Origin: a virus
DNA length: 29,016 nt
Virus record (IMG/VR): IMGVR_UViG_3300048929_000198
Span: 1-29,016 of that record
Direction: 5' to 3' (one strand)
The notes under the pieces: generated by a model
Seen by the model: only the letters and a program-made list of their open reading frames with translations
Told to the model about the DNA's origin: nothing
The model's database searches: none
Made by a program: the position numbers and the translations under genes
Part shown: in pieces, positions 6,132 to 20,403 of the stretch
Position numbering within the stretch: the stretch's first letter is position 1
How the letters are laid out: the number at the start of each line of letters is the position of its first letter

Positions 6132-6147
6132 CCGCGCATGAGTGCGG
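6132..6147 (+). terminator. Possible short hairpin upstream of the giant gene
   Basis: CCGCGC (6132-6137), loop ATGA and GTGCGG (6142-6147) form a 6-bp stem with one G-U pair, followed by CTTCTC. It lies in the 121-nt gap between the 381-aa gene and the giant gene and could be a weak terminator or a leader hairpin. It is too small to be certain. Confidence 0.25.
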
Positions 6148-6168
6148 CTTCTCGATAGGAGCCCACGC

Positions 6169-9100
6169 ATGCCAATCGTTATCGGACTCGGCGAAGATGC
6201 CGAGTGGAAAGACCCGCTCAACCTTTTTGGTGGCGAAGCACCGGGTCTAGCGCCTTCAACCGGTAATGTAGATCGACAAAAACCAGACCAGAATATGCGC
6301 GTTTCCATGCCTGAAGGCATGTCAGAGCGCGATTGGAATGACACCGTCAATACGGTGATTGCCGAGGCGGCAGGCGAGGGCGATGAAGGAATGGCGGGGG
6401 TGGCGCACGTCATTCAGAACCGTTCGAAGGTTCGCGGTCAGTCGATCGGGGATGTCGTCAGAGATCCAGACCAGTTCACCGGCTACTCCAAGCCGGGCCC
6501 GAAAGCACAGGAAGCCATGCGTGACCCGCAGATGCGGGCGAGGGCCGAGAATATCCTACGATCTGTCATGGCTGGAGAGGGTGACGATCCTACCGGTGGC
6601 GCGGACCATTATCACGCCGACTATGTGAGCCCGTATTGGGCAAAGTCTATGGTCGAGACCAAGCGCATCGGCAATCACCTCTACTACAATTCCAAGGCAG
6701 GCAATAAGCCGACCAGCTCCGAGACTGCGTTCGTTTCAGAGAATGATGGTTTGGGCCTATTGGGGCCGAAAGGCCAGTTTGGTGATATGCTGAAGGGTGA
6801 GCAGAAGTCCGACGTTCCCAACCCGAGCGGGAAGGGACTGGCGAGACTCGTCAGGGAGCCAGAAGAGAAAGAGAACAGCGGGGGCGGAAAGCTCAACTTC
6901 GTGCACCCCGGTCAGGAGAAGATTGCGCCGCAGTTTGCCGCGATCCTCACTGACACGTCGAAGGCCATGGGACGCGATATCACGATCAACTCTGGGTACC
7001 GGTCGCCTACTCATCGCGTGGAAGCGGCAAAGCCAGGCGGACCCGGCGAGCATTCGGATGGCACCGCGTCTGATATCTCGATGAAAGGCATGAGCGAAGG
7101 CGAACGCGCCAAATTGGTGCGCGAGCTATATTCCCGCGGTGCTCGTCGCTTTATCACCTACAAAAACAGCCCCGACATGCTCCACGTCGACATGAAGGAT
7201 CAGACGGGCAAGGGCACGCCTTGGTTCATGTTCGACAAGTCAGCCCGCAACATGCCGAACGCGCCGGCGTGGTTCAAGGAAGTGGCGGCAAATCCCGGCG
7301 AGGCGTCAGCATCCCGAGAAGCGATCGCATCTTCGCAGGGTGATGGTGGCGCCGCGGCCGGTACCGCGATCGTCATGGACGAGAATTACAAAGCTGGTGA
7401 CGCTTTCGGCCTCTTTTCCGGCACCACAAACCCCCTCGAAGCGGAGGCGAAGGCGACAGCCCAGGCAAGAACCGATGCCGCAGCAGCCGAGGCGCAGCGG
7501 ATCGAGCAAGAGCGCGTCGCGTCAGAAACAGCAGCCAACAATCGGACGGTTGATGCCCGCATAGCGGATGGCAAGGGTCGCTATGTGGCGGTCAATGAGA
7601 GCGAGCTTCCTGATTGGCAGAAGCAGTGGGACCAAAAGAACCGCTCGTCCGGCATCGTTGGCGATATCGTCCGGCGCTTCGGTATGGGCGCTGGTAGCAC
7701 CAGCCAGTCCATAAACAACCTCAATCGGCTTATCGTCTCCAAATTGCCGGGTGGCGACAGGATCAACGAGGCGCTCGATGGAATTGACCGCTGGTGGACT
7801 GGAAAGACCCAGAACGAGCAGACCCAAGAGAGTATCGATCGGATGTCTGGCAGTCTTTCGCCAGAAGGCGAGGCGGCTCGAGAGAAGAAGTGGTGGGACG
7901 AGGAAAACAAAACGCTCGGACCGGCATGGAAAGATCCGCGAAGCTATATCGGCACCATTGCTGAAAGCGCCCCGGCGACGATCGCCACTATGGCACCTTC
8001 GGGCCTGCTCGCTCGAGGCTCATTTATGGCCGCACGGGCAGCTGGCGCAACGGCAGAGGCCGCAGCAGCGACCGCCGCAAAGACAGCAACGATCGCCGGA
8101 GGCATCTCAGAAGGTCTTTTGGGCGGTGCAGATGCTGCTCTGTCAGTCAAACAGCGCATTGCTGAACTCCCGCGTGAGCAGCTCGTCGCCTCAGAGGCAG
8201 TGAAGCAGCTCGTCCAGGGTGGATTGTCGGAAGACGACGCCATCAAAGCGCTCAGTGAAGATGCCCAGGTGCAGGCCATGCTCACGGCTGGTGTCATCAC
8301 CGGAGCCTTCGGCGGTATGGGTGACCGTGCGCTCGCGAAGATCATCGCAGAAGGCGTAGAAGGAGGTATTGCTCGACGGATTGGCGTCGGTGCGGCGAAG
8401 GGAATGGTTGGCGAAGGCATCTTCGAAGAAGCGCCGCAAAGCGCAGGCCAGACCATCGCCGAAAACGCGGCGGTAGCGCGGGTGAAGCATGATCAGGATC
8501 TGACGGAAGGCCTGGGCGAATCCGTGGCGAGCGGTGTAGCAGCCGGTGGCGCAATGGGCGGCGGCATGGGTGCCGTGGGTGGCGTCGCTCGTCCGGCCGC
8601 AAGCAACACAGGCCCATCACCAGAGGTTGGGCAGGCAGCCCCGGAACCAACAGCGCCAGTCGAGCCAGATGACCGCGGACCTCTTCGTCGAGCAGCTGAT
8701 CACGGCCAGCAGCGCCAGGCAGACCGCGGGGCAGCCGCGAATGCTGGTGTCCCGATCGATGGCCGTCCCGGCGTCAAATCCACCGTGCGCGTCGAAGCTG
8801 AAGGCGTTACGCCTTTCATGGGCACCGTTGAAGGTTACGAGGGCGACGAGGCCGTCGTGGTCGATAGTGGAAGCGGGGAAGTCTATCAGGTGCCGTTGGC
8901 AAACCTGAGCGAGATTGCGCCTCCGGTCGCTGACTACCAGTATCCGGAAAAATCCCAGGACGGCATGCCTGAGCACTCGGCAGACCCGGCGCTGCAGCCA
9001 TTGCCGCCCATGTCGGCGGAGCTGACGTCAGAAATGCCGCCACGGTCCGAAGATATCCCCGCGACAGAGAAGCGCCCGACGAGGCCGCAGGCAGGCCAGC

Positions 9101-12100
9101 GCGTCATTGTTAATGATCCGGCAGCAGGCCGCTTCTCCGCCCGGATTGAGCGATATGAGAACGGTGGTACCGAGGCCGTTGTCGTCGATGACGAAGGCAA
9201 GCCTTATCAGGTGCCCCTCGAGTCAATGAAGGTCAACGGCCTGACGCCGGCGCAAGTCGAACAACAGGACCTCGAGCGTGATCCGCCCATCGAGCGCGAA
9301 ATCGGCGATGCAGGGCCGAACAGCCGAAAGATCGGCGACAAGACTGTCGTACTGCCGGATGAGAAGCACGCCGCGCTATACGACCTTGCCCGCGAACAGA
9401 TCATCGCCAAGAAGCTCGGCGGCACCTCTCAGATCGATATGGACAGCGTCTTGCCGCAAGAGCGCAAGCGGCTTGCGAACGAATTTCGCATTAAGGTGTC
9501 GGATCTGGCGACCTTGGCCGATGACTACCGGTACCGGGCAGAGCGAGCCGCTAAACAGGCGAAATCCAAGCTTCCGGTCAACATGCATGCGGTGAACGAT
9601 CGCTTGCTGAAACAGCGCCAATCAGCACTGGCGAAAGAGGCCGGTGAGGCACCGACACCGACCGCCGATGATGGCGCGACCTGGTGGGACGTTGATCTGA
9701 CCGCACAGGATCGCAAGGGCATTCTTGAAAAAGCGGGCGTCAAGCGCTCTGAGAGGCTGACTTGGGCCGGCATGACGCCGGGCATCCGGAAGAAGCTGAC
9801 CGACGTGCGGGACGCGCAGAGGGCTGCTTCGGAGGACGTCGAGACGCTGTCCGGGCAGAGCGATGTTTCTGCCAAAATGCAGGCCATTGCAGATGAAATC
9901 GGTCAGGATGATGGAGCTGTATATCCCGATCATGCGGAAGCGATGCAGGCTGACGCGGCTGCCAACATGGCGGCCACATCGCCAACCAACGATGGTTCAG
10001 AGCCCACTGAAGCGCAGAAGGAAGCCGGAAACTACAAGGTCGGGCGTCTGAAGTTGGGCGGCCTCGATGTCTCGATCGAAAATCCGGCTGGATCTACGCG
10101 AAAGGGCGTCTCCTCATCTGGTAAAGCATGGGCCGTCGAGATGAAGAGCCATTACGGCTACATCCGCGGTACCGTCGGTCGCGACAAGGACCATATCGAC
10201 GTCTTCGTTCGTCCTGGTACCGATGCGCTGGACGATTCCTCTCCGATCTTTGTCGTCGACCAGAAAGACCCCGCGCGCGGTCGTTTCGACGAGCACAAAG
10301 TGATGGCTGGTTTCGACAACGAAGCGCAGGCGCGTGCCGCATATCTCGAAAACTACACCGCTGACTGGAAGGGGCTGGGAGACATCACCCAGACCACGCT
10401 TGGCGATTTCAAGACGTGGTTGAAGTCCGGCAAGACTTCAGACCCTTTCGCACCGAAATGGTTTGCGTCACAGGAGAAGGCGGAGGGCTACGTCGCTAAG
10501 AACAAGATGGGCGAGACCCACGAGGTTGTTCAGAGAGGTAAGCGCTTCGAAGTTCTGGAGCGAGCGCGCACCACGCCAGCGGTCCGCAGCGGGAAAGGCA
10601 CTGAGCTTGATCCAAACGCTCATCCTTGGTCCGATGTTTGGGGGAGCGATGCCGATGCGGTCTCTGACGCGCTTAGCCGCATCACCAGCACCAACGGCGG
10701 CGACACTCCTATCTCGGATGCCGTTAAGGCGGACGTCGGCAACAAGGAACTGTTGCAGCTGATCGAGAAGCGTTGGGGTGAAGGCGGCGCAGGTGGCAAT
10801 CGCTACATGATCGAGACCCGCAAGGGACCGATCGTGACGATCACGCTGGAAAAGGACGAGGGCAACCAGCGTATCGTTCTGCGCGGCAAAGAACTGGCAG
10901 ATGCCATCCGCAAGGAGTTCGCTGTTTCGCTTGAGGACATGAAGCGTGAGGCTGCCGCTCGTGAAGAGAAGGTGGAAGCACCACAGCAGCCGAAACAGGA
11001 AGCCCCAGCGCAGCAAGAACAGGCTAAATTGAAGCCTAAACCCGCAGTCTCGGAGAACAAGCTTTTCACCGAAGACGCCGCTGCCAAGGCGCGCGAGTTG
11101 CTCCGAAAGAAGCTCTCTGGGAACACGCTGAACAGCGGCATTGACCCGGAATTGCTGCAGGCCGGTATTACGCTCGCCGGCTATCACATCGAAAAGGGTG
11201 CCCGCACCTTTGCCGCATATGCGTCCGCCATGCTCGCTGACCTTGGAGAAGGCGCGCGCCCGTACCTGAGATCGTGGTATATGGGGGTGAAGTATGACCC
11301 CCGCGCCTCGGCATTCGATGGGATGTCGAGCGCGGCAGAGGTCGAGGCCGCAGACGTCAACACCTTCACCGGAGAGACCAATGAACCTGAACAACTGGAT
11401 CGAGATGGGGCGCCAGCACTGGAAGGAGTTTCTGCCGAACCGGTACCGGGAGCTGAAAGCGGCCGGGACGCTGGACGAAGCACTGGAGACAGCAGCGGAG
11501 CAGACGTATCTGGAAGCCGACCAGCTGGAGAAGAACGGGTTCCAGGCGGACGAGGCGTGGCAGATGGTGAGGGAGAACTATCTCCTGTTGCCGCCGGAAG
11601 ACAGCCAGGCAACCGAAAGCCAGACGCAGACGTCGCAGGATCTGATGAGCGCAGCGAGAAGCGGGCAAAGGACGGTCGAGATCAGGTAGCTCGTACAGCA
11701 GCGGTTCCGGCGCAGCAGCGCCCATCCGATTACGTCATCACCGACGCTGACGGTCTGGGTGAGGGCGGTCAAAAGGCGAAGTTCCGTGCAAACGTCGCCG
11801 CGATCGAGTTGGTGAAGCAGCTCGACGAGCAGAAGAGACCAGCCACCCGCGACGAGCAGGCGGTTCTCGCTAAATGGGTCGGCTGGGGCGGCTTGCGAGC
11901 TGCTTTCCCGCGTGAAGATGGCAGTGTCGCCAAGGGCTGGGAAAAGGAAGCGGCGGAGCTGAAATCGCTGCTGACGAAGGAAGAGTATAGCGCCGCCGAG
12001 TCATCGACGAGGAACGCGCATTACACGTCGCCTGAAATCGTCGATGCAGCGTGGTCGATTGCGCAGCGCCTCGGCTTTAAGGGAGGCCAGGTGCTTGAGC

Positions 12101-15100
12101 CGTCCGTTGGAGCTGGAAACTTCCTCGGTCTGATGCCCGGTGAAGTGCGCGGCACTTCCCACGTCACCGGCGTCGAACTGGACCGGATCACGGGTAGTAT
12201 TGCCAAAAATCTTTATCCATCGGCAAACATTCAGGCCCCGATCGGCTTTGAGAAGCTGACCGTCCCCAATTCCTACTTCGATCTGGCGATCGGCAATCCG
12301 CCATTTGGCTCTGAAAAGCTCTATGACAAAGAGCGGACGCATCTCAACACGCTGTCGATCCATAATTTCTTCTTTGCCAAGGCGATCGAGACGCTGCGAC
12401 CAGGTGGCATCCTAGCGATGGTCGTTACAAACCGGTTCCTGGACGGCCAGTCAGCAGCAGCGCGCAACCTGATCCAATCCAAGGCGGATTTCATCGGCGC
12501 TATCCGCCTGCCGAATGACGCGTTCTTGAAGAACGCCGGTACCGAAGTCACAACGGACATCGTCATTCTACAGCGCAGAGAAGCCGGCGCAGCCCCGAAG
12601 GGCAGCGATTGGCTCGAAGTTGTCGATTATCGCGCCAGGAACGGCAACGTCGTACCTCTCAACAAGTATTTCGTCGAAAATCCCGACATGATGCTGGGCG
12701 AGTTCGGCGGCTACGGCTCTATGTACGGTCCCAACGAGCCCGCCTTGATCGCTCGAGGCGGTCAGAATACCGCGGCGGAGCTGGCGAAAGCTGTCGAGAA
12801 GCTGCCCCAAGACATCATGGGCGATACTGTGCCTGTGAGGGTGACAGAAACTGTCACGGTACCGGAAACAGTGGGCGACGTTCAGGTCGGCACGATGTTC
12901 TCCGCCCCGGACGGATCAATTCATCTCCGCACCCCTGATCACATCGGCCAGCCCACATCCAAGGCAGTCGATTTCGCCAACGAGACGGCGAAAGAGCGCG
13001 TCGCCGGAATGGTCCGAGTAAGGGATGCTTTCGCCAAGCTGAGACGCGCTCAGATCAGCGATACCGCCTCGGATCAGCAGATTGAAAACCTGCGAAAAAG
13101 GTTGAATACCTTCTACGATGCCTTTGTAAACAAACACGGACCTATTAACAGCGACGCGAACAAGCGTCTATTCCGAGACGATCCGACGTGGCCGCAAATC
13201 AGCGCTCTTGAGCAATCCTTCGACAAGGGTTTGAGAGCGGCACTTGCCAAAAAAACAGGGGAAAAGCCCCGCGCACCTACTGCAACGAAGGCGGCGATCT
13301 TCACGCGGCGGACGCAGCAGCCTTACAGACGCCCGACAAACGCCAGCAGCGCGAAGGACGCGCTTGCGACGATTCTCAATGATTATGGTCGGGTGAACCT
13401 CGAGGCCATGTCGGACCTATATGGCAAGTCGCAAGAAGCCATCGTGGAAGAGTTGGGGTCTCTGATCTTCAAGACGCCTGCGGGCGCCTATGAGACGGCA
13501 GACCAATATCTTTCCGGCAATGTGAAGCAGAAGCTTGCAGAGGCCGAACGCGCCGCAGAGCAGGATCCAGAATACCGCCGCAATGTGAATGCGCTGCGCG
13601 ACGTGATCCCAGCCGACATCGAGGCGATCGATATCGATGTGAAGCCAGGCGCTCCATGGTTGCCAGCGAACCATGTCGAAGACTTCATTGCTCACATCGC
13701 GCAGGCAGCGGTGAAGCCGCGCGCCTATTATTCCGTCGCGAATGCGAAGTGGGACCTCACGGTCTCGCAAGTCACGCCGGCGGCGCAGACACTTTGGGGG
13801 ACTGACAGAGCCGGCGTAGGGACCGTCCTGAGTGCCGTGATGAACGGTCAGACCATCACGATCTCCGACAGGACATCGGATGGCAAGTCCATCGTCGATC
13901 AAGCAGCAACCGATGCGGCCAATGAGAAGGTGGAGCGCGTAAAAGCCGAGTGGCGCAAGTGGCTCTGGCAAGACGACAAGCGCCGTGACGATCTCGCGCG
14001 GCTTTATAACGACACGTTCAATACCGACGTTATCCAGCAGTTCGACGGCTCGCACCTCACATTGCCGGGGAAGGTCGGCGACGACATCATCGAGCTTCGT
14101 CCAAGCCAGAAGAATTTCATCTGGCGCACTTTGCAGAGCGGTACCGCTCTTGCCGATCACACCGTGGGAGCGGGGAAGACATTCGCGGCGATCGCCTCGG
14201 TCATGGAGAAGCGCCGAACCGGCCAAGCCCGCAAACCAATGATGGTGGTACCGAACCATCTTGTCGGGCAGTGGGCAGCCGACTTCGTGCGTCTTTATCC
14301 AGGCGCTAAGGTGCTGGCAGCCACAAAGCAGGATTTTGAGAAGGAACGGCGGAAACGTCTTTTCGCTCGCATAGCCACCGGCGATTGGGACGCGGTCATT
14401 GTCGCTCACTCCTCATTCGGCAGAATCGGCGTTGATCCGAATTATGAGGCGAAGTTCATCCAGCAGCAGATGGATGATCTGGAAGCCTCGCTGGCAGAGG
14501 TACGGCGCGAGACCGGGCAGAAAAGCCGAAACGTGGCGCAACTCACCAAGTGGCGCGACAACCTGAAAGCCAAGATGGAGCGGCTGCTCGATTCCGGACG
14601 CAAGGATGACGGCCTTACCTTCGACGAGCTGGGCGTCGATGCGCTCTATGTCGATGAGGCGCACGAGTTCAAGAACCTTGCTTACTCGACATCGATGCAA
14701 CGCGTGGCTGGTCTCGGCAACATGGCCGGATCCTCAAAGGCCGCTGACCTCTACATGAAGTCCCGGTTCATCCTTGAAAAGACCGGTGGCAACAACCTGG
14801 TGTTCCTCACCGGCACTCCGCTGTCGAACACGATGGCCGAAATGTACACCGTCCAGCGCTATCTCGACGAGAAGGCGCTGCGGGCCATGGGCGTGGCGCA
14901 TTTCGATGCGTGGGCGCGTGTCTTCGGCGAAGTCGTCACTGATTGGGAATTGTCACCGTCCGGTCAGTATAAGCTCAATAGCCGCTTCTCCAAGTTTGTG
15001 AACGTTCCTGAGCTGATGCAGCGGTATCGCAGCTTCGCCGACGTCATCACCAACGACGACATCAAGGCGCAGCTTGCCGCACAGGGCAAGAAATTCCCTC

Positions 15101-18100
15101 TGCCAAAGGTCAAGGGCGGAAAGCCTACCAACATCGTAGTGGAGCGCTCCCCTGATCAGGCAGCTTACATCGGCGTGGGGCAGGCCGATGACGCCGGCAA
15201 CCTGGTGTTCCCGAATGGGTCTCTTGTATGGAGGGCCGAGAACCTGCCGAAGAAGGCCGAGAAGGGCAAAGACAACATGCTGAAAGTCATGTCGGACGCC
15301 CGTAAGGCGGCGCTCGATATGCGTCTGATCGACCCAAGCTATCCGGACCACCCAAAGTCGAAGATCCATCGCGCCGCAAACGAGATGACGCGGATCTACA
15401 AGGCGTCAAAAGAAGATCGCGGTACCCAGCTCGTCTTTATCGACTTGTCCACTCCCAAAAAGGAGAGGGTCAAGGAGCAAATACGTATACGTGACCTCAT
15501 GGAGCGCGCCGCTCAGGGTGATGAGGCGGCTATGGAAACGCTCGACAACATGTCCCCCGACGAGTTCCTTTCACTCGACAGCACGTTCTCCGTCTACGAT
15601 GACCTGAAGCAAAAGCTCGTCGCTCGCGGCATATCGGAAAGCGAAATCGCCTTCATCCACGATGCCAACACTGAGGCGCAGAAGGAGGAATTGTTCGGAA
15701 AGGTCCGTTCAGGCCGCGTCCGCTTCCTATTCGGCTCTACCGCGAAGATGGGCGCCGGTACCAACGTTCAGAACCGCCTCGTCGCGCTGCATCACCTTGA
15801 TGCACCGTGGCGTCCTTCCGACCTTGAACAGCGTGACGGGCGAGGGATACGCCAGGGCAATGAGCTATATGCTGCCGATCCGGAAGGTTTCGAGATCGAA
15901 ATCCTCCGCTATGCCACGAAGAACACGCTTGATGCTCGCCAGTGGCAGACCATCGAGGCCAAGGCGCGGTTTATCCAGCAGGTGCGCAAGGGTGATATGA
16001 AAACCCGCGAAATCGAGGACATAGCAGGCGAAGCCGCGAACGCCGCTGAAATGAAAGCAGCCGCTTCCGGCAATCCTCTCATCCTTGAGGAGATGGACAC
16101 GCGCCGGAAGCTCAGACAGCTTGAGGGCCAGTCTATCGAGCACGACCGTGAGCAGCATCGCGTGAAGGGCAAGATCAAGTCGCTCGAAGATGAAGCGGAC
16201 CGGTTGCAGCGTGGTCTCTCAAAGGTCGAAGCCGATGCCGATTTGGCGCGAAAGGTTCCCGAGGAGTTCGCCGGTACCGTTGGTGGTCAAACGTTTGAAA
16301 AGCGCAAAGACTTTGGCGCGGCCATCGTCGCGGCGATGCGAAAAGAGCTGATCGACAAGGAAGGCGTTCGCGAGATCGGCGAGTACGCCGGTTTCAAGGT
16401 CGGCATTGATCCTCTGGGATTTGGCAGAGCGTTCAACGTGACGCTCGAGGGCGCGCGGGAATACACTGTTCCAGTCGACGACGCTTCCGACGTCGATGCT
16501 GCTGGTCTCGCGCAGCGCATCATGAATACCGTGAAGCGCCTCGCAAACCAGCCAGCGATCGACAAAGAGCGCATCAGCGAGGCGAAAGCGCAGGTTCCCG
16601 CCCTTCAAAAGCAGATCGGCGCGTGGGAAGGCGCTCAGGAGCTTGCCGATACCGCCGCTCGCCATCGCCGGATTTTGGACGCGCTGAAGCCTCAGCCAAA
16701 GAGTGCCAAGACGTCGGTCAAGGTGGAAGCTGGTGATGTGGATGCCCCGATCGCGAACAAGCGTCCTGATCCTGTCGTTATAGCCATCGCCAATGATCTG
16801 CAAACCGTCGGCATACCGGCTGCGCCCAATAGCACGGCCATCTTCCAGTGGGCGAAGGACACGATCGCGCGTTTCGGCAAGTCGGGGCACGAGTATCTTA
16901 TGGCCGTCGACGACGATGGCAGCGTTGTCGAGTTCGGTACCGCCAAGAAGAAGGCCGCGACCGGAATCAACAACAAGCTGTATGGCGCATTGCTCAATCC
17001 AGATCGTCGCCTCGTTGTGTTCCACAATCACCCCAGCAACAGCCCTCTGAGTGTTGCCGATATCTCAATGATGGGGATGCCGGGACTTCACTCGGTCTGG
17101 GCATTTGGAGCGAACGGCATGCAGATGCGCGCCGTTCTCACCCCCGAGGCAGAGGCCGTGATGCGCGCCGCGGCAGATCCCAATCAGACAGTGAAGGCTT
17201 GGCGAGACACCTTGTCGTCGGCGCTTGAGCAAGTCGATGCATTCTTGCGCCCACTCGTCACCAGCGGCGTGATCGATGTGGAGGCTGGCAACGCTGCCTA
17301 TACCAACACGGCGGCAATTCTGGCTCAAAAGGCCGGGCTTATCGACATTTCCTCAAATACCAACTATGATACTTCCGCCATCGAGGGCTTGAATGCCAAG
17401 CTCGATAAATTGGCGGTCGCTCTGAAGGAACAGATCAGCGATGGCACAGCAGGCAGCACCGATAAGGGGATTTCACGACGACCCGCCCGCGACGTTCGAC
17501 ACGTTGCAGAAGTGGAAGGATTGGCACGCATCGGTGAGCCAATGGCCGGCACGCGATCCGGACCGGCAGGGCTATCTGAAACAGGCGCGCCAGATTATCA
17601 GAGAAAAGAGCGCCGTTCAGACAAACAGCCAGGACGAGTCGAAGGCGTAACCCAATCGCGCATCGTCGAGGAGCTGCGCGGTAAGCTGACCGATTTGCAG
17701 CCTGCGCTCCTGAAAACCATCCCCCTTAACTATTTCTCAGAACTTGCCCGTTCGAACATGACGGCGGTTGGCGACTATCTGCGCGTCAAGCGCTTGATGG
17801 ATGCCTTCAGGGGGAAGAAGCATGCCGAGGCCGATTCCGTAGCACAGGATTGGTTGAAATACACCCGTCTTGGGTTTGCCGGCAAAGACAAGGCCAAGGC
17901 GCAGGAACTTGCCGACCTGATGCATGACGCTACCCTCGCGGGTGTCGATCCAGCCGCTACGGACGACGAGACCAAAGCGCTCTCCGGGGATGACCACCTG
18001 CGCAAGCGTTTCATGGCGCTGCCGCCAAAGGGGCGGGAACTTTATGTGAAAGTCAGGGACGCGTATCGGGAGCAGTCGCAGGAGCTTGACGAAATACTGC

Positions 18101-20403
18101 TCGACAACGTCCGCAAGGCACAGCAGATCGCTGAGAAAAACGCCGAGGATCGTTACAAGCTCACGATGCAGAAGATCAAGGACGCTGGACTGACCGGCAT
18201 TGATCGCAAGAACGCCGAGGAAGATGCCACCAGCGCCTACAAGGCGGAGACGACGAAATCCCGATGGGCAGCGAAAGCCCGCCTGACCCGGATGCGCATT
18301 GCGTTCGAATCGAGCCGGGTGCAGCCTCCATATTTTCCTCTTGGCCGTTTCGGTCGGTATTTCGCGACCGTGCGGGACATCGATGGAAGGGTGCTGAGCT
18401 TCTCAAAGCACGAGACCGTCGCTGAACGCGATCGGATGGCGCGCGAGCTACGAGCTGAATATCCGGCCGGAAAAGTCGAAGTCGGTGTGATGGAAGCCAG
18501 CGGCGACATGCGCAAGGCTATGGATCCGCGCATCGTCGCAGAAATCGAGGAGATTTTGGGCGGCGCGAACATTGGCGGCGACGTCATGGATCAGATATGG
18601 CAGCGATACCTCGAGTCGATGCCAGACCTGTCTACCCGCAAGCGCTTCATCCACCGTAAGGGCACTGCGGGTTACAGCAAGGATGCACTGCGCGTCTTCT
18701 CCTCGCACATGTTCCACGCCGCCCACCAGATGGCACGCCTGAAATACGGCCTCGAGCTGCAGGAGCTGGTCAACAACACGGTTGACCAGGCGAAGGAGAG
18801 CGACGATCAGACCCGCGCCATGACGTTGGCGAATGAGCTTTCCAGCCGCCACAAGTGGGTGATGAACCCGACTGGCAGCAAGGTCGCTCAGACGATGACG
18901 AGCACCGCCTTCGTGTGGTACCTCGCTGCATCCCCCGGTGCCGCTCTGGTCAACATGACGCAAACTGTCATGCTTGGTCTGCCTATTCTGGCTGCCAAAT
19001 TCGGAGGCTTTAAGCAGGCAGCAGTAGCGCTCAGTAAAGCTTCCGCCGATTCTGTAGCTGGCAAGGGCAGTGTGGTGAGCGATCGCCTCGCACCGGACGA
19101 GCGGCGAGCGATGGACGCGTTCTACGAATCCGGGCTGATCGACAGAACACAAAGCCATGATCTCGCAGGGGTGGGCGAAACGGGTGTCGAGTACACGCCT
19201 CTCCGAGCAAAGGTGATGGAGAAGATTTCATGGGCTTTCCACCGCGCCGAGGTTTGGAACCGTGAGGTAACTGCACTCGCGGCCTACCGCATGGCTCGCG
19301 CTGAAGGTCAGAATATGTCTGACGCGATCGACACCGCTCACGATCTGACGTGGAAGACGCACTTCGACTATTCCAACAGCTCGAGGCCCGCCGTTCTGCA
19401 GAACGACTTCGCAAAGGTCGCTCTCGTTTTCCGTCAGCACAACATCAACATGCTTTACCGGGTGGCGCGCGACATCCACCAGTCGGTTAAGGGCGAAACT
19501 CCACAGGCCCGGCGCGAAGCCCGGTACCAGCTCGCCGGCGTCATGGGCATGATGGCAGCTATGGCCGGCGTGACGGGAACCATGGGCTTCAGCGTTGCTA
19601 TGATGATTGCGGGCGCGATCTTCGGCGATGATGACGACCCGATGGCGTTTGAAGATCAGTTCAAGGCCGATGTCGTCGATATCCTCGGCCCGCAGCTGGG
19701 GGGCGTTCTTCTCAACGGTGTGCCGGGGCATTATCTGGGCATCGACCTGTCATCCCGCATTGGCATGCCGGATCTGTGGTTCCGGTCGCCGACGAGGGAG
19801 CTGCAAGGCAAGGACGAATACCAGTATTGGCTATCGCAGAGCCTCGGCGCGACGGTCAGCCTGGGCGAGCAGCTCTACACCGGCTTCAAGGTCATGACGG
19901 ATGATGGAGACGTGGCGCGCGGCATAGAGATGATGGCGCCGAAGGCGGTTCGCGACCTGATGAAAGCCTATCGCTACTCGCAGGACGGCGTTGCGACGAT
20001 CGGTAAGGATCAGATCCTCGGTGCCGACCAGATCGACGCGACAGATATTGTCGCGCAGGCGATGGGCTTCACCCCCGCCAAGATTGCAGAGACGTGGGAG
20101 CGAAACAGCGCACTGAAGAACGCAGAGACCCGCGTCAAGCGCACCCGTCAAGCGTTGATCAACAGATGGGCGATGGCGACGATGGCGGGCGACAAGGAAG
20201 CTGCGGCAGAGGTGCTGGAGAGCATCAAGCGGTTCAATTCTCTCCCCGTTCACGCTGGTTTCCCGATCAAGGGCGAAACCCTCAAGCGCTCGATCCAGAC
20301 ACGTGCCACCAACGCGGCGAAGAGAGAAGATGGGGTTCTGATCGGCAACAAGGCGCTGGGAGCGTCGCTGAGAGAGCGGTTGGCCGATCCGGTCTATCGA
20401 TAA
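6169..20403 (+). CDS. Giant polyvalent PLxRFG protein: SleB-M15-InPase-methylase-SNF2-JAB fusion (4744 aa)
   Basis: The ATG at 6169 has AGGAG at 6157-6161 (7-nt spacing); an in-frame GTG at 6142 is less likely. Domains in order, by residue: SleB-like hydrolase 51-174; M15-like Zn peptidase 242-372; Ala-rich coiled coil about 430-480; Ala/Gly-rich hydrophobic region 601-811; two SH3-like repeats 872-916 and 977-1022; InPase 1288-1421; a conserved helical block 1631-1714; disordered linker 1 about 1735-1843; N6-adenine methylase 1852-2140; SNF2 helicase 2640-3290; coiled coil 3310-3360; JAB/RadC-like 3530-3690; disordered linker 2 about 3755-3830; PLxRFG region 3835-4744. This matches the polyvalent proteins described from phages and conjugative elements, thought to travel with the DNA into the new host and carry entry and anti-restriction functions. 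Here it is probably an ejected virion protein. The TAA (20401-20403) is followed by a terminator-like hairpin. Catalytic motifs of all enzyme domains look intact. Two other genes lie in its +1 frame inside the linkers. Confidence 0.92.
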   Translation: MPIVIGLGEDAEWKDPLNLFGGEAPGLAPSTGNVDRQKPDQNMRVSMPEGMSERDWNDTVNTVIAEAAGEGDEGMAGVAHVIQNRSKVRGQSIGDVVRDPDQFTGYSKPGPKAQEAMRDPQMRARAENILRSVMAGEGDDPTGGADHYHADYVSPYWAKSMVETKRIGNHLYYNSKAGNKPTSSETAFVSENDGLGLLGPKGQFGDMLKGEQKSDVPNPSGKGLARLVREPEEKENSGGGKLNFVHPGQEKIAPQFAAILTDTSKAMGRDITINSGYRSPTHRVEAAKPGGPGEHSDGTASDISMKGMSEGERAKLVRELYSRGARRFITYKNSPDMLHVDMKDQTGKGTPWFMFDKSARNMPNAPAWFKEVAANPGEASASREAIASSQGDGGAAAGTAIVMDENYKAGDAFGLFSGTTNPLEAEAKATAQARTDAAAAEAQRIEQERVASETAANNRTVDARIADGKGRYVAVNESELPDWQKQWDQKNRSSGIVGDIVRRFGMGAGSTSQSINNLNRLIVSKLPGGDRINEALDGIDRWWTGKTQNEQTQESIDRMSGSLSPEGEAAREKKWWDEENKTLGPAWKDPRSYIGTIAESAPATIATMAPSGLLARGSFMAARAAGATAEAAAATAAKTATIAGGISEGLLGGADAALSVKQRIAELPREQLVASEAVKQLVQGGLSEDDAIKALSEDAQVQAMLTAGVITGAFGGMGDRALAKIIAEGVEGGIARRIGVGAAKGMVGEGIFEEAPQSAGQTIAENAAVARVKHDQDLTEGLGESVASGVAAGGAMGGGMGAVGGVARPAASNTGPSPEVGQAAPEPTAPVEPDDRGPLRRAADHGQQRQADRGAAANAGVPIDGRPGVKSTVRVEAEGVTPFMGTVEGYEGDEAVVVDSGSGEVYQVPLANLSEIAPPVADYQYPEKSQDGMPEHSADPALQPLPPMSAELTSEMPPRSEDIPATEKRPTRPQAGQRVIVNDPAAGRFSARIERYENGGTEAVVVDDEGKPYQVPLESMKVNGLTPAQVEQQDLERDPPIEREIGDAGPNSRKIGDKTVVLPDEKHAALYDLAREQIIAKKLGGTSQIDMDSVLPQERKRLANEFRIKVSDLATLADDYRYRAERAAKQAKSKLPVNMHAVNDRLLKQRQSALAKEAGEAPTPTADDGATWWDVDLTAQDRKGILEKAGVKRSERLTWAGMTPGIRKKLTDVRDAQRAASEDVETLSGQSDVSAKMQAIADEIGQDDGAVYPDHAEAMQADAAANMAATSPTNDGSEPTEAQKEAGNYKVGRLKLGGLDVSIENPAGSTRKGVSSSGKAWAVEMKSHYGYIRGTVGRDKDHIDVFVRPGTDALDDSSPIFVVDQKDPARGRFDEHKVMAGFDNEAQARAAYLENYTADWKGLGDITQTTLGDFKTWLKSGKTSDPFAPKWFASQEKAEGYVAKNKMGETHEVVQRGKRFEVLERARTTPAVRSGKGTELDPNAHPWSDVWGSDADAVSDALSRITSTNGGDTPISDAVKADVGNKELLQLIEKRWGEGGAGGNRYMIETRKGPIVTITLEKDEGNQRIVLRGKELADAIRKEFAVSLEDMKREAAAREEKVEAPQQPKQEAPAQQEQAKLKPKPAVSENKLFTEDAAAKARELLRKKLSGNTLNSGIDPELLQAGITLAGYHIEKGARTFAAYASAMLADLGEGARPYLRSWYMGVKYDPRASAFDGMSSAAEVEAADVNTFTGETNEPEQLDRDGAPALEGVSAEPVPGAESGRDAGRSTGDSSGADVSGSRPAGEERVPGGRGVADGEGELSPVAAGRQPGNRKPDADVAGSDERSEKRAKDGRDQVARTAAVPAQQRPSDYVITDADGLGEGGQKAKFRANVAAIELVKQLDEQKRPATRDEQAVLAKWVGWGGLRAAFPREDGSVAKGWEKEAAELKSLLTKEEYSAAESSTRNAHYTSPEIVDAAWSIAQRLGFKGGQVLEPSVGAGNFLGLMPGEVRGTSHVTGVELDRITGSIAKNLYPSANIQAPIGFEKLTVPNSYFDLAIGNPPFGSEKLYDKERTHLNTLSIHNFFFAKAIETLRPGGILAMVVTNRFLDGQSAAARNLIQSKADFIGAIRLPNDAFLKNAGTEVTTDIVILQRREAGAAPKGSDWLEVVDYRARNGNVVPLNKYFVENPDMMLGEFGGYGSMYGPNEPALIARGGQNTAAELAKAVEKLPQDIMGDTVPVRVTETVTVPETVGDVQVGTMFSAPDGSIHLRTPDHIGQPTSKAVDFANETAKERVAGMVRVRDAFAKLRRAQISDTASDQQIENLRKRLNTFYDAFVNKHGPINSDANKRLFRDDPTWPQISALEQSFDKGLRAALAKKTGEKPRAPTATKAAIFTRRTQQPYRRPTNASSAKDALATILNDYGRVNLEAMSDLYGKSQEAIVEELGSLIFKTPAGAYETADQYLSGNVKQKLAEAERAAEQDPEYRRNVNALRDVIPADIEAIDIDVKPGAPWLPANHVEDFIAHIAQAAVKPRAYYSVANAKWDLTVSQVTPAAQTLWGTDRAGVGTVLSAVMNGQTITISDRTSDGKSIVDQAATDAANEKVERVKAEWRKWLWQDDKRRDDLARLYNDTFNTDVIQQFDGSHLTLPGKVGDDIIELRPSQKNFIWRTLQSGTALADHTVGAGKTFAAIASVMEKRRTGQARKPMMVVPNHLVGQWAADFVRLYPGAKVLAATKQDFEKERRKRLFARIATGDWDAVIVAHSSFGRIGVDPNYEAKFIQQQMDDLEASLAEVRRETGQKSRNVAQLTKWRDNLKAKMERLLDSGRKDDGLTFDELGVDALYVDEAHEFKNLAYSTSMQRVAGLGNMAGSSKAADLYMKSRFILEKTGGNNLVFLTGTPLSNTMAEMYTVQRYLDEKALRAMGVAHFDAWARVFGEVVTDWELSPSGQYKLNSRFSKFVNVPELMQRYRSFADVITNDDIKAQLAAQGKKFPLPKVKGGKPTNIVVERSPDQAAYIGVGQADDAGNLVFPNGSLVWRAENLPKKAEKGKDNMLKVMSDARKAALDMRLIDPSYPDHPKSKIHRAANEMTRIYKASKEDRGTQLVFIDLSTPKKERVKEQIRIRDLMERAAQGDEAAMETLDNMSPDEFLSLDSTFSVYDDLKQKLVARGISESEIAFIHDANTEAQKEELFGKVRSGRVRFLFGSTAKMGAGTNVQNRLVALHHLDAPWRPSDLEQRDGRGIRQGNELYAADPEGFEIEILRYATKNTLDARQWQTIEAKARFIQQVRKGDMKTREIEDIAGEAANAAEMKAAASGNPLILEEMDTRRKLRQLEGQSIEHDREQHRVKGKIKSLEDEADRLQRGLSKVEADADLARKVPEEFAGTVGGQTFEKRKDFGAAIVAAMRKELIDKEGVREIGEYAGFKVGIDPLGFGRAFNVTLEGAREYTVPVDDASDVDAAGLAQRIMNTVKRLANQPAIDKERISEAKAQVPALQKQIGAWEGAQELADTAARHRRILDALKPQPKSAKTSVKVEAGDVDAPIANKRPDPVVIAIANDLQTVGIPAAPNSTAIFQWAKDTIARFGKSGHEYLMAVDDDGSVVEFGTAKKKAATGINNKLYGALLNPDRRLVVFHNHPSNSPLSVADISMMGMPGLHSVWAFGANGMQMRAVLTPEAEAVMRAAADPNQTVKAWRDTLSSALEQVDAFLRPLVTSGVIDVEAGNAAYTNTAAILAQKAGLIDISSNTNYDTSAIEGLNAKLDKLAVALKEQISDGTAGSTDKGISRRPARDVRHVAEVEGLARIGEPMAGTRSGPAGLSETGAPDYQRKERRSDKQPGRVEGVTQSRIVEELRGKLTDLQPALLKTIPLNYFSELARSNMTAVGDYLRVKRLMDAFRGKKHAEADSVAQDWLKYTRLGFAGKDKAKAQELADLMHDATLAGVDPAATDDETKALSGDDHLRKRFMALPPKGRELYVKVRDAYREQSQELDEILLDNVRKAQQIAEKNAEDRYKLTMQKIKDAGLTGIDRKNAEEDATSAYKAETTKSRWAAKARLTRMRIAFESSRVQPPYFPLGRFGRYFATVRDIDGRVLSFSKHETVAERDRMARELRAEYPAGKVEVGVMEASGDMRKAMDPRIVAEIEEILGGANIGGDVMDQIWQRYLESMPDLSTRKRFIHRKGTAGYSKDALRVFSSHMFHAAHQMARLKYGLELQELVNNTVDQAKESDDQTRAMTLANELSSRHKWVMNPTGSKVAQTMTSTAFVWYLAASPGAALVNMTQTVMLGLPILAAKFGGFKQAAVALSKASADSVAGKGSVVSDRLAPDERRAMDAFYESGLIDRTQSHDLAGVGETGVEYTPLRAKVMEKISWAFHRAEVWNREVTALAAYRMARAEGQNMSDAIDTAHDLTWKTHFDYSNSSRPAVLQNDFAKVALVFRQHNINMLYRVARDIHQSVKGETPQARREARYQLAGVMGMMAAMAGVTGTMGFSVAMMIAGAIFGDDDDPMAFEDQFKADVVDILGPQLGGVLLNGVPGHYLGIDLSSRIGMPDLWFRSPTRELQGKDEYQYWLSQSLGATVSLGEQLYTGFKVMTDDGDVARGIEMMAPKAVRDLMKAYRYSQDGVATIGKDQILGADQIDATDIVAQAMGFTPAKIAETWERNSALKNAETRVKRTRQALINRWAMATMAGDKEAAAEVLESIKRFNSLPVHAGFPIKGETLKRSIQTRATNAAKREDGVLIGNKALGASLRERLADPVYR
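6319..6690 (+). other. Domain: SleB-like cell-wall hydrolase (giant protein residues 51-174)
   Basis: The pattern AEAAGEGDEGMAGVAHVIQN (65-84) followed by R85, then a V-V..P.QF segment, DPTGGADHYH and a final NHLYYN, is the Hydrolase_2/SleB layout (E-A.GE...G..AVA.vi.NR; QF; DPT.GA..Y). E66 or E70 would be the catalytic acid. SleB-type enzymes are lytic transglycosylases. In a virion protein this would help DNA cross the peptidoglycan, or it could serve lysis. Confidence 0.85.
6892..7284 (+). other. Domain: M15-like D,D-peptidase (residues 242-372)
   Basis: SGYRSPTHR, then GEHSDGTASDIS, then MLHVDMK match the Peptidase_M15_3 pattern. H295, D302 and H339 would be the zinc ligands and are all present. 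Members cut peptide bonds in peptidoglycan stems. The domain follows the SleB-like domain after a 70-residue linker, giving glycan-strand and peptide-cutting activities on one chain. Confidence 0.8.
7969..8601 (+). other. Ala/Gly-rich hydrophobic region of the giant protein (residues 601-811)
   Basis: About 200 residues are dominated by Ala, Gly, Ile and Met, with helices such as AGATAEAAAATAAKTATIAG and a terminal GGAMGGGMGAVGGVA stretch. In between is EGIFEEAPQSAGQTIAEN, a motif seen in large phage ejection proteins. The composition suits insertion into or passage through a membrane. Function is inferred. Confidence 0.5.
8782..8916 (+). other. SH3-like repeat A (residues 872-916)
   Basis: TVRVEAEG, F.GTVEGYEGDEAVVVD and YQVPLANL form a small beta-barrel-like unit. 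It is paralogous to the unit at residues 977-1022, with which it shares the AVVVD..G..YQVPL core. Such units usually bind nucleic acid or protein; here the role is unknown. Confidence 0.6.
9097..9234 (+). other. SH3-like repeat B (residues 977-1022)
   Basis: QRVIVNDPAAG.F.ARIERYENG precedes the same EAVVVDDEGKPYQVPLESM core as in repeat A, about 105 residues downstream of it. This is an internal duplication separated by a Pro/Glu-rich linker. Confidence 0.6.
10030..10431 (+). other. Domain: polyvalent-protein inorganic-pyrophosphatase-like (InPase, residues 1288-1421)
   Basis: The block starts NYKVGRL..GL.VSIENPAGS.R, continues HYGYIRGTVGRDKDHIDVFV, then FVVDQKD....FDEHKVMAGF and ends FKTWLKSG. 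D1339-x-D1341-x-x-D1344 reproduces the D-x-D-x-x-D metal-binding signature of class I inorganic pyrophosphatases. This fits the InPase family described within phage polyvalent proteins. It would hydrolyse pyrophosphate or a related phosphoanhydride; the true substrate is unknown. Confidence 0.85.
11371..11376 (+). promoter_or_regulatory. Shine-Dalgarno-like GGAGAG for the nested gene at 11381
   Basis: GGAGAG stands 4 nt (GGAG 6 nt) upstream of the ATG at 11381, well placed for internal initiation on the giant mRNA. Confidence 0.55.
11381..11689 (+). CDS. Nested gene in +1 frame inside the giant gene (102 aa)
   Basis: It lies wholly inside the giant gene, in the +1 frame, with ATG at 11381 and TAG at 11687-11689. 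The 102-aa product looks like a genuine folded helical protein. It begins MNLNNWIEMGRQHWKEF, continues with LKAAGTLDEALETAAEQTY and FQADEAWQMVRENYLLLP, and has a polar Gln/Ser/Thr tail. In this frame about 84% of third positions are G or C (86 of 102 counted by eye). In the overlapping giant frame the third positions of the same bases are only about 40% G/C and the product is a disordered Gly/Ser/Asp/Arg linker. So the nested frame carries the coding signature. I recall similar W-I-E...W.E..P...R.L small proteins beside phage polyvalent methylase genes, but cannot prove homology here. Function is unknown. The frame is open upstream to 11294, but that extension is not protein-like. Confidence 0.75.
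   Translation: MNLNNWIEMGRQHWKEFLPNRYRELKAAGTLDEALETAAEQTYLEADQLEKNGFQADEAWQMVRENYLLLPPEDSQATESQTQTSQDLMSAARSGQRTVEIR
11722..12588 (+). other. Domain: N6-adenine DNA methylase (residues 1852-2140)
   Basis: Motif I is VLEPSVGAGNF (1975-1985), which would bind AdoMet. Motif IV is NPPFG (2043-2047), the catalytic loop of N6-adenine methylases. Upstream are GEGG..AKFR and KWVGWGGLRAAF, the usual lead-in of phage and plasmid methylase-SNF2 proteins, and AHYTSPEIV precedes motif I. A likely role is protective methylation of incoming DNA (anti-restriction). Target specificity cannot be read from the sequence. Confidence 0.9.
14086..16038 (+). other. Domain: SNF2-type helicase/translocase (residues 2640-3290)
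   Basis: Walker A is VGAGKT (2666-2671), the DEAH box is VDEAH (2828-2832), motif III is LTGTPLSNT (2880-2888), and the C-terminal lobe has STAKMGAGTNVQNR and motif VI QRDGRGIRQGN (3221-3231). All motifs look intact, so the ATPase is probably active. SNF2 proteins move along duplex DNA. Coupled to the methylase, this would be an anti-restriction or DNA-remodelling engine. Confidence 0.92.
16756..17238 (+). other. Domain: JAB/RadC-like metalloprotease fold (residues 3530-3690)
   Basis: HNHPSNSPLSVADI holds the JAMM pattern: H3619, H3621, S3628 and D3631. It is preceded by KLYGALLNPDRRLVVF, as in RadC/MPN domains. The zinc-binding residues are kept, so an isopeptidase or peptidase activity is possible. 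It could process the giant chain itself or act on host proteins; neither is proven. Confidence 0.8.
17441..17650 (+). CDS. Second nested gene in +1 frame inside the giant gene (69 aa)
   Basis: ATG at 17441 and TAA at 17648-17650, in the +1 frame of the giant gene, the same phase as the first nested gene. The product begins MAQQAAPIRGFHDDPPATF and then forms Trp- and Arg-rich helices (LQKWKDWHASVSQW, YLKQARQIIREKS) before a polar tail. About 74% of third positions are G/C in this frame (51 of 69 by eye) against about 46% in the giant frame, whose product here is a disordered Gly/Arg/Ser linker. AAGGA at 17425-17429 is 11 nt upstream, longer than ideal, so initiation may be weak. Function is unknown. 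It sits just between the JAB-bearing block and the PLxRFG block, as the first nested gene sits between the InPase block and the methylase block. Confidence 0.65.
   Translation: MAQQAAPIRGFHDDPPATFDTLQKWKDWHASVSQWPARDPDRQGYLKQARQIIREKSAVQTNSQDESKA
17671..20400 (+). other. PLxRFG C-terminal region with hydrophobic segments (residues 3835-4744)
   Basis: The eponymous PPYFPLGRFGRYF lies at 4053-4065. It is preceded by long charged helices (about 3950-4040) and followed by a hydrophobic stretch at 4248-4276 (FVWYLAASPGAALVNM onwards). A stronger one lies at 4453-4486 (Met/Ala/Gly-rich), ending in an acidic GDDDDP turn. This 900-residue block is the standard C-terminus of PLxRFG phage proteins. 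A role in membrane insertion during ejection is inferred from composition. Confidence 0.8.

What the first reader, a model, noticed from the sequence alone, without database searches (positions are those of the whole stretch)
17441..17650. A second nested gene in the same relative frame, in the second linker
A 69-aa ORF in the same +1 phase, with Trp/Arg-rich helices and a plausible start, sits in the other major disordered linker of the giant protein. G/C at third positions is about 74% in the nested frame versus about 46% in the giant frame (counted by eye). Two independent cases at two domain boundaries make chance less likely.
Basis: partly seen in the sequence, partly recalled or inferred. 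Interest (0 to 1): 0.72.

Follow-up and report, generated by a model that had tools for sequence, protein, structure and literature searches.

The report
Hidden partner gene inside giant gene
Inside one enormous phage gene, a second small gene is written in a shifted reading frame; it is a real, conserved gene that elsewhere sits as an ordinary gene right behind the same enzyme domain, so it is probably that enzyme's dedicated partner.

Summary
The 69-codon ORF at 17441-17650 is real and conserved, although its length proves nothing: synonymous shuffles of the giant gene give about ten such ORFs in this phase, and ten are seen. Evolution settles it. In four groups of relatives the giant frame's wobble positions are nearly frozen here while the nested frame's wobble positions change fastest. 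All 18 viral and 7 genomic loci of two scans keep it in the same +1 phase; all 28 nested copies examined have an ATG start (L271, outside that set, has none). They follow genes ending in a JAB/JAMM metalloenzyme domain, 8 of 10 tested being MuF-like phage head proteins. In a scan by JAB motif, 33 of 33 close JABs with enough downstream sequence carry the small gene, but only 58 of 169 of all JABs. In the giants the JAB frame reads on through it into LPD39. So a JAB-partner gene pair had its second gene overprinted when the JAB protein was extended. By position the product resembles the immunity protein of MuF toxins; inhibitor is my leading guess, adaptor the main rival. No expression data exist here.

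The parts
17441..17650 (+). nested gene, 69 aa, +1 phase inside the giant gene; small partner protein of the JAB domain
   Evidence: homologues nested and stand-alone
17425..17430 (+). Shine-Dalgarno-like AAGGAA, 10 nt before the nested ATG (a long spacing)
   Evidence: read; duplex energy -5.7 kcal/mol; mean of 28 nested starts -6.2 against -3.5 for 523 control ATGs (spacing not scored)
16810..17439 (+). JAB/JAMM domain plus C-terminal helices, in the giant frame; ends directly before the nested ATG
   Evidence: alignment A5: E28, H72, H74, S81, D84 invariant in 27; model pLDDT 94; best solved fold is a JAMM protein, E 0.015
17650..18210 (+). LPD39 domain in the giant frame; begins at the last base of the nested stop codon
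   Evidence: PF18858, E 8e-65, giant residues 3837-4023
6142..20403 (+). giant DarB-like polyvalent protein gene that hosts the nested gene
   Evidence: relatives annotated DarB-like antirestriction

Best explanation
17441-17650 is a genuine protein-coding gene nested in the +1 frame of a giant phage gene. Its product is the dedicated small partner of the JAB/JAMM domain encoded directly upstream. The ancestral arrangement is an ordinary gene pair, JAB protein then small protein, the JAB domain often being the tail of a phage head (MuF-like) protein. When the JAB reading frame was extended downstream to add LPD39 and further domains, it read through the small gene in the other frame. The small gene was kept, with its own ATG and ribosome site, and the giant protein's linker is the by-product. 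Mechanism (inferred): the giant protein is made for packaging and injection, and the small helical protein is translated separately from the same mRNA, binds the JAB region and holds it inactive in the producing cell, as immunity proteins are thought to do for MuF toxins. Shown: conserved coding, phase, start signals, neighbourhood with close JAB domains. Inferred: translation, binding, inhibition, the direction of evolution.
For: Coding: differences per site at giant codon positions 1/2/3 are 0.183/0.010/0.052 in the nested core against 0.113/0.062/0.432 over giant residues 1720-4750 (close group); the three highest pos1/pos3 ratios of 150 sliding windows (60 codons each) overlap the nested ORF. 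The reversal repeats in four groups, ratio 1.65-3.0 inside, 0.08-0.66 in the flanks. Nested-frame identity exceeds giant-frame identity in 85 of 91 pairs of 14 sequences. Phase: 18 of 18 viral loci and 7 of 7 genomic loci, many of them near copies, nested in the same phase. Initiation: 28 of 28 nested copies have an ATG, 26 of them with SD energy -5.0 or lower against 32.5% of 523 controls; in three (L034, two copies in L074) a stop codon abuts the ATG, which excludes frameshift entry from upstream. Stand-alone forms. Linkage: small-gene hits within 900 nt downstream of 84 of 207 JAB domains, 0 on the opposite strand and 0 of 169 upstream; among loci new in the JAB-motif scans with JAB E<=1e-20 and >=500 nt downstream 33 of 33, or 29 of 29 distinct, 29 of 33 with the first profile alone. 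Ten related giants show neither this JAB nor the small gene in the stretches fetched. One natural JAB-small in-frame fusion, L153. MuF toxin genes are followed by small ORFs taken as immunity genes (PMC5576092, passages and section 8).
Against: No expression, binding or activity data. Linkage falls with distance from the window's JAB: 51 of 68 at E<=1e-15 and 58 of 169 over all new JAB-motif loci with >=500 nt downstream. The JAB profile was built from linked cases and the second small-gene profile was trained on loci of these same scans, which favours the high figure; at least three of the 33 (L256, L259, L289) lie on contigs already in hand. Two small genes (L077, L078) have no JAB in the stretch held. 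Only 21 of 44 un-nested pairs have the 4-base start/stop overlap. The fusion in L153 speaks more for a permanent subunit than for a removable inhibitor. One nested copy, L271, has no ATG near its start. The window's SD-like site is 10 nt from the ATG, and L081 and L075's second copy have weak sites. For the window against L022, L020 and L099 the giant frame is the better conserved. In 14 of the 31 distinct nested loci the JAB frame runs off the stretch held.
Confidence: 0.85

Rival explanations
1. Same nested gene and same partner, but the small protein is a loading chaperone, adaptor or permanent subunit that folds the JAB region or brings the head/ejected protein into the capsid, not an inhibitor.
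For: In-frame JAB-small fusion L153; 8 of 14 JAB ORFs tested carry a MuF head domain; small two-helix protein; two and four copies in G391 and G404.
Against: Position and size match the small ORFs behind MuF toxins that are taken as immunity genes; tandem copies also resemble extra immunity genes; ten giants without the JAB domain show no copy, so it is not a general loading factor.
Confidence: 0.33
2. The small protein is the substrate of the JAB enzyme, which cleaves it or its conserved DPPSPF segment.
For: JAB proteins of known function cut protein tails (PMC3482391, passages); conserved extended N-terminal DPPSPF-like segment.
Against: RadC-like JAB domains are argued in print to lack the groove for a protein tail and to act on nucleic acids or nucleotides (PMC5512222, passages); a substrate need not be encoded directly behind the enzyme.
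Confidence: 0.1
3. A chance open frame with no product: conserved only because the giant linker or an RNA element is conserved.
For: ORF length is as expected by chance, 10 seen and 10.2 +/- 2.1 expected.
Against: Codon-position pattern of the nested frame in four groups; stand-alone homologues outside any host gene; ATG in 28 of 28 copies examined.
Confidence: 0.03
4. The nested frame is reached by ribosomal frameshifting, giving a giant protein truncated after the JAB domain with the small domain as its tail.
For: In many members the nested frame is open for tens of codons upstream of the ATG; L153 shows that a JAB-small fusion can exist; L271 has no ATG.
Against: A stop codon abuts the ATG in L034 and in two copies in L074, and lies five codons before it in the window; the open stretch before the ATG varies from 0 to 104 codons, whereas an ATG is present in all 28 copies examined.
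Confidence: 0.04

Closest known systems
MuF polymorphic toxins and their downstream small (immunity) ORFs (PMC5576092, passages and section 8)
   Same: small ORF under 150 aa directly behind the gene for a C-terminally extended MuF head protein; 8 of 14 JAB ORFs tested here carry PF04233
   Different: toxicity and neutralisation untested; here the small gene can lie entirely inside the effector gene; the JAB extension is not named in the passages read (that paper's Ct_MAD domain may be it, not checked)
RadC/JAB domains of polyvalent phage proteins (PMC5512222, passages) and Tox-JAB toxins (PMC3482391, passages)
   Same: JAB motif E, HxH, S, D; giant multi-domain protein thought to be injected
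   Different: Pfam RadC scores stay below its cut-off; the passages read mention no small partner gene for the polyvalent RadC/JAB domains, and for Tox-JAB-2 an NTF2-fold immunity protein unlike this hairpin
Nested same-strand overlapping genes (e.g. Rz1 inside Rz in phages; recalled) and the phase-1 bias of long overlaps (PMC2542354, abstract)
   Same: complete nesting, own start, phase 1
   Different: here un-nested relatives in the same order show stages: adjacent, short overlap, nested at the 3' end, nested inside a giant
DarB-like giant proteins of PBC5-like phages (Atu_ph08, PMC6630229, section 3.11)
   Same: the host gene of the nested ORF belongs here
   Different: no nested gene is annotated in the four records fetched with it or mentioned in the section read

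Membership tests
Protein-coding nested overlapping gene | selection acts on the nested frame's codons | tested here: met
Protein-coding nested overlapping gene | conserved start codon and ribosome site | tested here: met
   ATG in 28 of 28 copies examined; mean SD energy -6.2 against -3.5 in 523 controls (many copies are near relatives, spacing was not scored, and where several in-frame ATGs lay near, the one with the best SD was taken). In the wider set one of 31 distinct nested loci, L271, has no ATG
Protein-coding nested overlapping gene | translated product detected | not testable with these tools
   no expression data
MuF toxin immunity gene | small ORF directly downstream of the effector gene | tested here: met
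   44 of 76 distinct loci un-nested, 21 of these 44 with a 4-base start/stop overlap; the window's copy is nested instead
MuF toxin immunity gene | effector harms cells and the small protein neutralises it | not testable with these tools
   bench work needed
MuF toxin immunity gene | present with the toxin domain and absent without it | tested here: inconclusive
   10 of 10 giants without the JAB show none in the stretches fetched; 33 of 33 close JABs have it, but only 58 of 169 over all new JAB-motif loci
JAB/JAMM metalloenzymes | E, HxH, S, D metal-site residues and fold | tested here: met
   invariant in 27 of 27; top solved fold PfJAMM1, probability 1.00 but E 0.015; JAMM and deaminase proteins follow
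RadC (PF04002) | score above the Pfam cut-off of 22.1 bits | tested here: not met
   16.4, 13.8 and 13.2 bits in three of 14 JAB ORFs, not listed for the other 11 nor for the window's giant
Any named small-protein family | match in Pfam, NCBIfam or PHROGs | tested here: not met
   best E 0.022, 0.026, 0.031 over 17 members

The most novel reading that the evidence does not exclude
A phage effector (JAB) and its antidote form a widespread, undescribed pair carried by head and giant injected proteins. In the giants the antidote gene is overprinted inside the effector's own gene, so that neither can be lost, recombined away or expressed without the other.
Probability: 0.42. Interest if true: 0.85.

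Novelty: new variant of a known kind. Interest (0 to 1): 0.75.

Why it matters
Fully nested bacterial and phage genes are hard to prove. Here un-nested relatives in the same order suggest how one arose, and which gene is the older. It also exposes an unannotated protein family tied to a JAB enzyme that phages may package and inject, which makes the function of that JAB domain directly testable (JAB alone against JAB with partner). None of the four annotated records fetched with it lists the gene.

Tried and rejected
ORF length as evidence: rejected by synonymous shuffles.

Named families for the small protein: Pfam, NCBIfam and PHROGs gave only chance-level matches. Solved structures: no convincing match by sequence or fold. 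Plasmids: no convincing match. Phage records: only Atu_ph08, PBC5 and Ruegeria phage 45A6 hold convincing matches; I take the Streptococcus, microvirus, mycobacteriophage, Rhodococcus and Helicobacter phage hits as chance. The stand-alone form of L076 found nothing in phage records, and the form from G404 no relative in viral contigs.

Second search route for close JAB loci returned 8 contigs, all already known.

A first count of 4-base overlaps (30 of 44) only asked whether the JAB stop was TGA behind A, G or T; it is withdrawn. The recount with the start codon in place gives 21 of 44.

How often nesting arose: a quick tree of 82 JAB rows (72 different) needs 5 changes between nested and not; well-supported branches force only one. 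Several rows sit on long branches, so the number of origins is left open.

Hits of the DNA motif scan: 4 of 26 (L090, L091, L101, L104) were dropped as unrelated before counting; L090 and L101 match the profile weakly (E 2e-3).

Not followed: 14 of the 24 LPD39 records were not fetched for that test (four of them are Atu_ph08 and PBC5); the weak matches in G032, G142 (second place), G146, G176, G197, G483 and G650 were not examined. Literature one search was badly framed (one term sufficed, 544,346 papers) and tells almost nothing.

Full report
What was reported. The ORF, its phase and its third-position G+C (73.9% against 45.7% in the giant frame) are as stated. It fills the stretch between the last helix of a JAB region (modelled to about 17436) and LPD39 (from 17650).

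Chance. Length alone says nothing. The +1 phase of this gene holds 10 ATG ORFs of 69 aa or more; 300 shuffles of synonymous codons give 10.2 +/- 2.1, and this very ORF survives in 93 of 300.

Homologues in the same place. tblastn of the product against 50,697 phage records found Agrobacterium phage Atu_ph08 (89.6%, E 8e-33), Sinorhizobium phage PBC5 (51%, 1e-4) and Ruegeria phage 45A6 (36%, 0.4; 2e-4 from the PBC5 protein), each in the +1 phase of a giant gene behind the same domain. A scan of viral contigs gave 18 loci and one of genome contigs 7 loci; all 25 are nested in the same phase in an open giant frame. They are not 25 independent cases: several are near copies, and PBC5 and 45A6 products occur again among them.

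Selection. In this phase the giant's wobble base is the nested second base, and the nested wobble base is the giant's first base. Among close relatives the differences per site at giant positions 1/2/3 are 0.113/0.062/0.432 over residues 1720-4750 but 0.183/0.010/0.052 in the nested core. The same reversal appears in four groups that share no sequences (A, B, C, D: 1.81, 2.00, 3.00, 1.65 inside; 0.08 to 0.66 in the flanks), though group C rests on two contigs and about five differences and D on three sequences; a mixed set of distant members gives 1.43 inside, 0.82 and 0.54 outside. In 85 of 91 pairs of 14 sequences the nested product is more alike than the giant frame over the same bases; the window against L022, L020 and L099 are among the six exceptions.

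Initiation. All 28 nested copies examined have an ATG shortly before the conserved segment. The mean energy of pairing with the 16S tail is -6.2 kcal/mol, against -3.5 for 523 other +1 ATGs in six giants; 26 of 28 reach -5.0, against 32.5% of the controls. Spacing was not scored, many copies are near relatives, and where several in-frame ATGs lay near, the best was taken. In three copies (L034 and two in L074) a stop codon abuts the ATG, and in the window a stop lies five codons upstream; this speaks against frameshift entry. In the wider set one nested copy, L271, has no ATG, only GTG codons.

Stand-alone relatives. Searches of 397 and 385 whole genomes and a DNA-motif scan of viral contigs (22 of 26 hits judged real, 12 nested and 10 not) gave un-nested forms. 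In L076 the small gene begins in a 4-base overlap with a Phage_Mu_F gene whose tail is a JAB domain, and is followed by a tail-completion gene. In L074 four copies lie in a row, each in the +1 phase of an overlapping ORF; L075 has two copies inside a JAB ORF.

Linkage with JAB. With one profile for the JAB core and one for the small protein, every small gene that I accept among the loci, except L077 and L078, lies 226-379 nt downstream of a JAB core on the same strand, apart from the extra copies in L074 and L075, which lie further on. Ten related giants (of 24 records) show neither this JAB nor the small gene in the stretches fetched, which reach 8 kb upstream of LPD39. To sample without using the small gene, viral contigs were scanned for the JAB motif. 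Over 207 JAB domains, 22 of them from the small-gene scan, 84 have the small gene within 900 nt downstream, none on the opposite strand, and 0 of 169 upstream. Among the loci new in these scans with at least 500 nt downstream, the count is 33 of 33 for JAB E<=1e-20 (29 of 29 distinct; 29 of 33 with the first small-gene profile alone), 51 of 68 for E<=1e-15 and 58 of 169 for all. The JAB profile was built from linked cases, the second small-gene profile was trained on loci of these scans, and at least three of the 33 lie on contigs already in hand, so the first figure is favoured; the decline with distance is real or reflects missed, diverged small genes. In 76 distinct loci the arrangement is nested +1 in 31 (in 14 of these the JAB frame runs off the stretch held), un-nested phase 2 in 29, un-nested phase 1 in 14, un-nested phase 0 in 1, and one in-frame fusion (L153 read). 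Of the 44 un-nested pairs, 21 have a possible start in a 4-base overlap with the JAB stop.

How it arose (inferred). The JAB protein of un-nested pairs stops about where the small gene starts; in the giants the same frame reads on. Intermediate overlaps (4, 17, 25, 38 nt), nesting near the 3' end (L074, L275) and nesting within giants all exist. This fits loss of the upstream stop and extension over the next gene, one of two routes considered by Sabath and co-workers (PMC2542354, abstract), who also report that long phase-1 overlaps outnumber phase-2 ones. On this view the small protein is the older text and the giant's linker the newer. A quick tree of 82 JAB rows needs five changes; strong branches force only one, and it is not rooted.

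What it does (inferred). The JAB region models at pLDDT 94 with E28, H72, H74, S81 and D84 invariant in 27 sequences; the best solved fold is the archaeal JAMM1 (probability 1.00, E 0.015), with deaminase-fold and other JAMM proteins next. Pfam's RadC model scores below its cut-off. The small protein (the L076 member) models as an extended start and two helices, pLDDT 82. Of 14 JAB ORFs tested, 8 carry Phage_Mu_F (8 of the 10 un-nested ones), one a portal and an Acb1 anti-CBASS domain, one PBECR3, one ddrB-ParB with Peptidase_M15; three gave no domain above a cut-off. MuF and polyvalent proteins are thought to be packaged and injected (PMC5512222, passages). [quoted passage not shown] From this I infer that the small protein restrains the JAB enzyme in the producing cell. 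The fusion L153, a single metagenomic case that a sequencing error could mimic, leans to a permanent subunit instead. I put inhibitor at about one half and adaptor or subunit at about one third.

Novelty. Literature searches (one search was uninformative) gave listings, several capped at 8 to 10 rows; I read passages or sections of four papers and one abstract. None of this described the nested gene or a JAB-linked small family; most subscription papers are not covered. The kind (nested gene, effector with neighbour gene) is known; the family and the overprinted arrangement appear new.

Noticed in passing
   Followed up: partly
L003:1125-7718: In the PBC5 record the upstream half of the giant gene is annotated as a separate gene whose frame runs into that of the first nested ORF, so the giant appears frameshifted or split there.
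   Followed up: no
L074:6463-8254: Four copies of the small gene in a row, each overlapped in the same phase by another ORF; the three downstream ORFs are short and two resemble the tail of the JAB protein, as if tail and partner had been duplicated together.
   Followed up: partly
L153:342-2189: Natural in-frame fusion of a JAB protein with the small domain at its C-terminus.
   Followed up: partly
L082:2046-4763 (minus strand): Portal protein fused to an Acb1 anti-CBASS domain and a JAB domain, followed by the small gene.
   Followed up: no
L078:8050-8241 (minus strand): Orphan small gene in a bacterial contig, with no JAB in the 16 kb held and nucleotide-sugar epimerase genes nearby.
   Followed up: no
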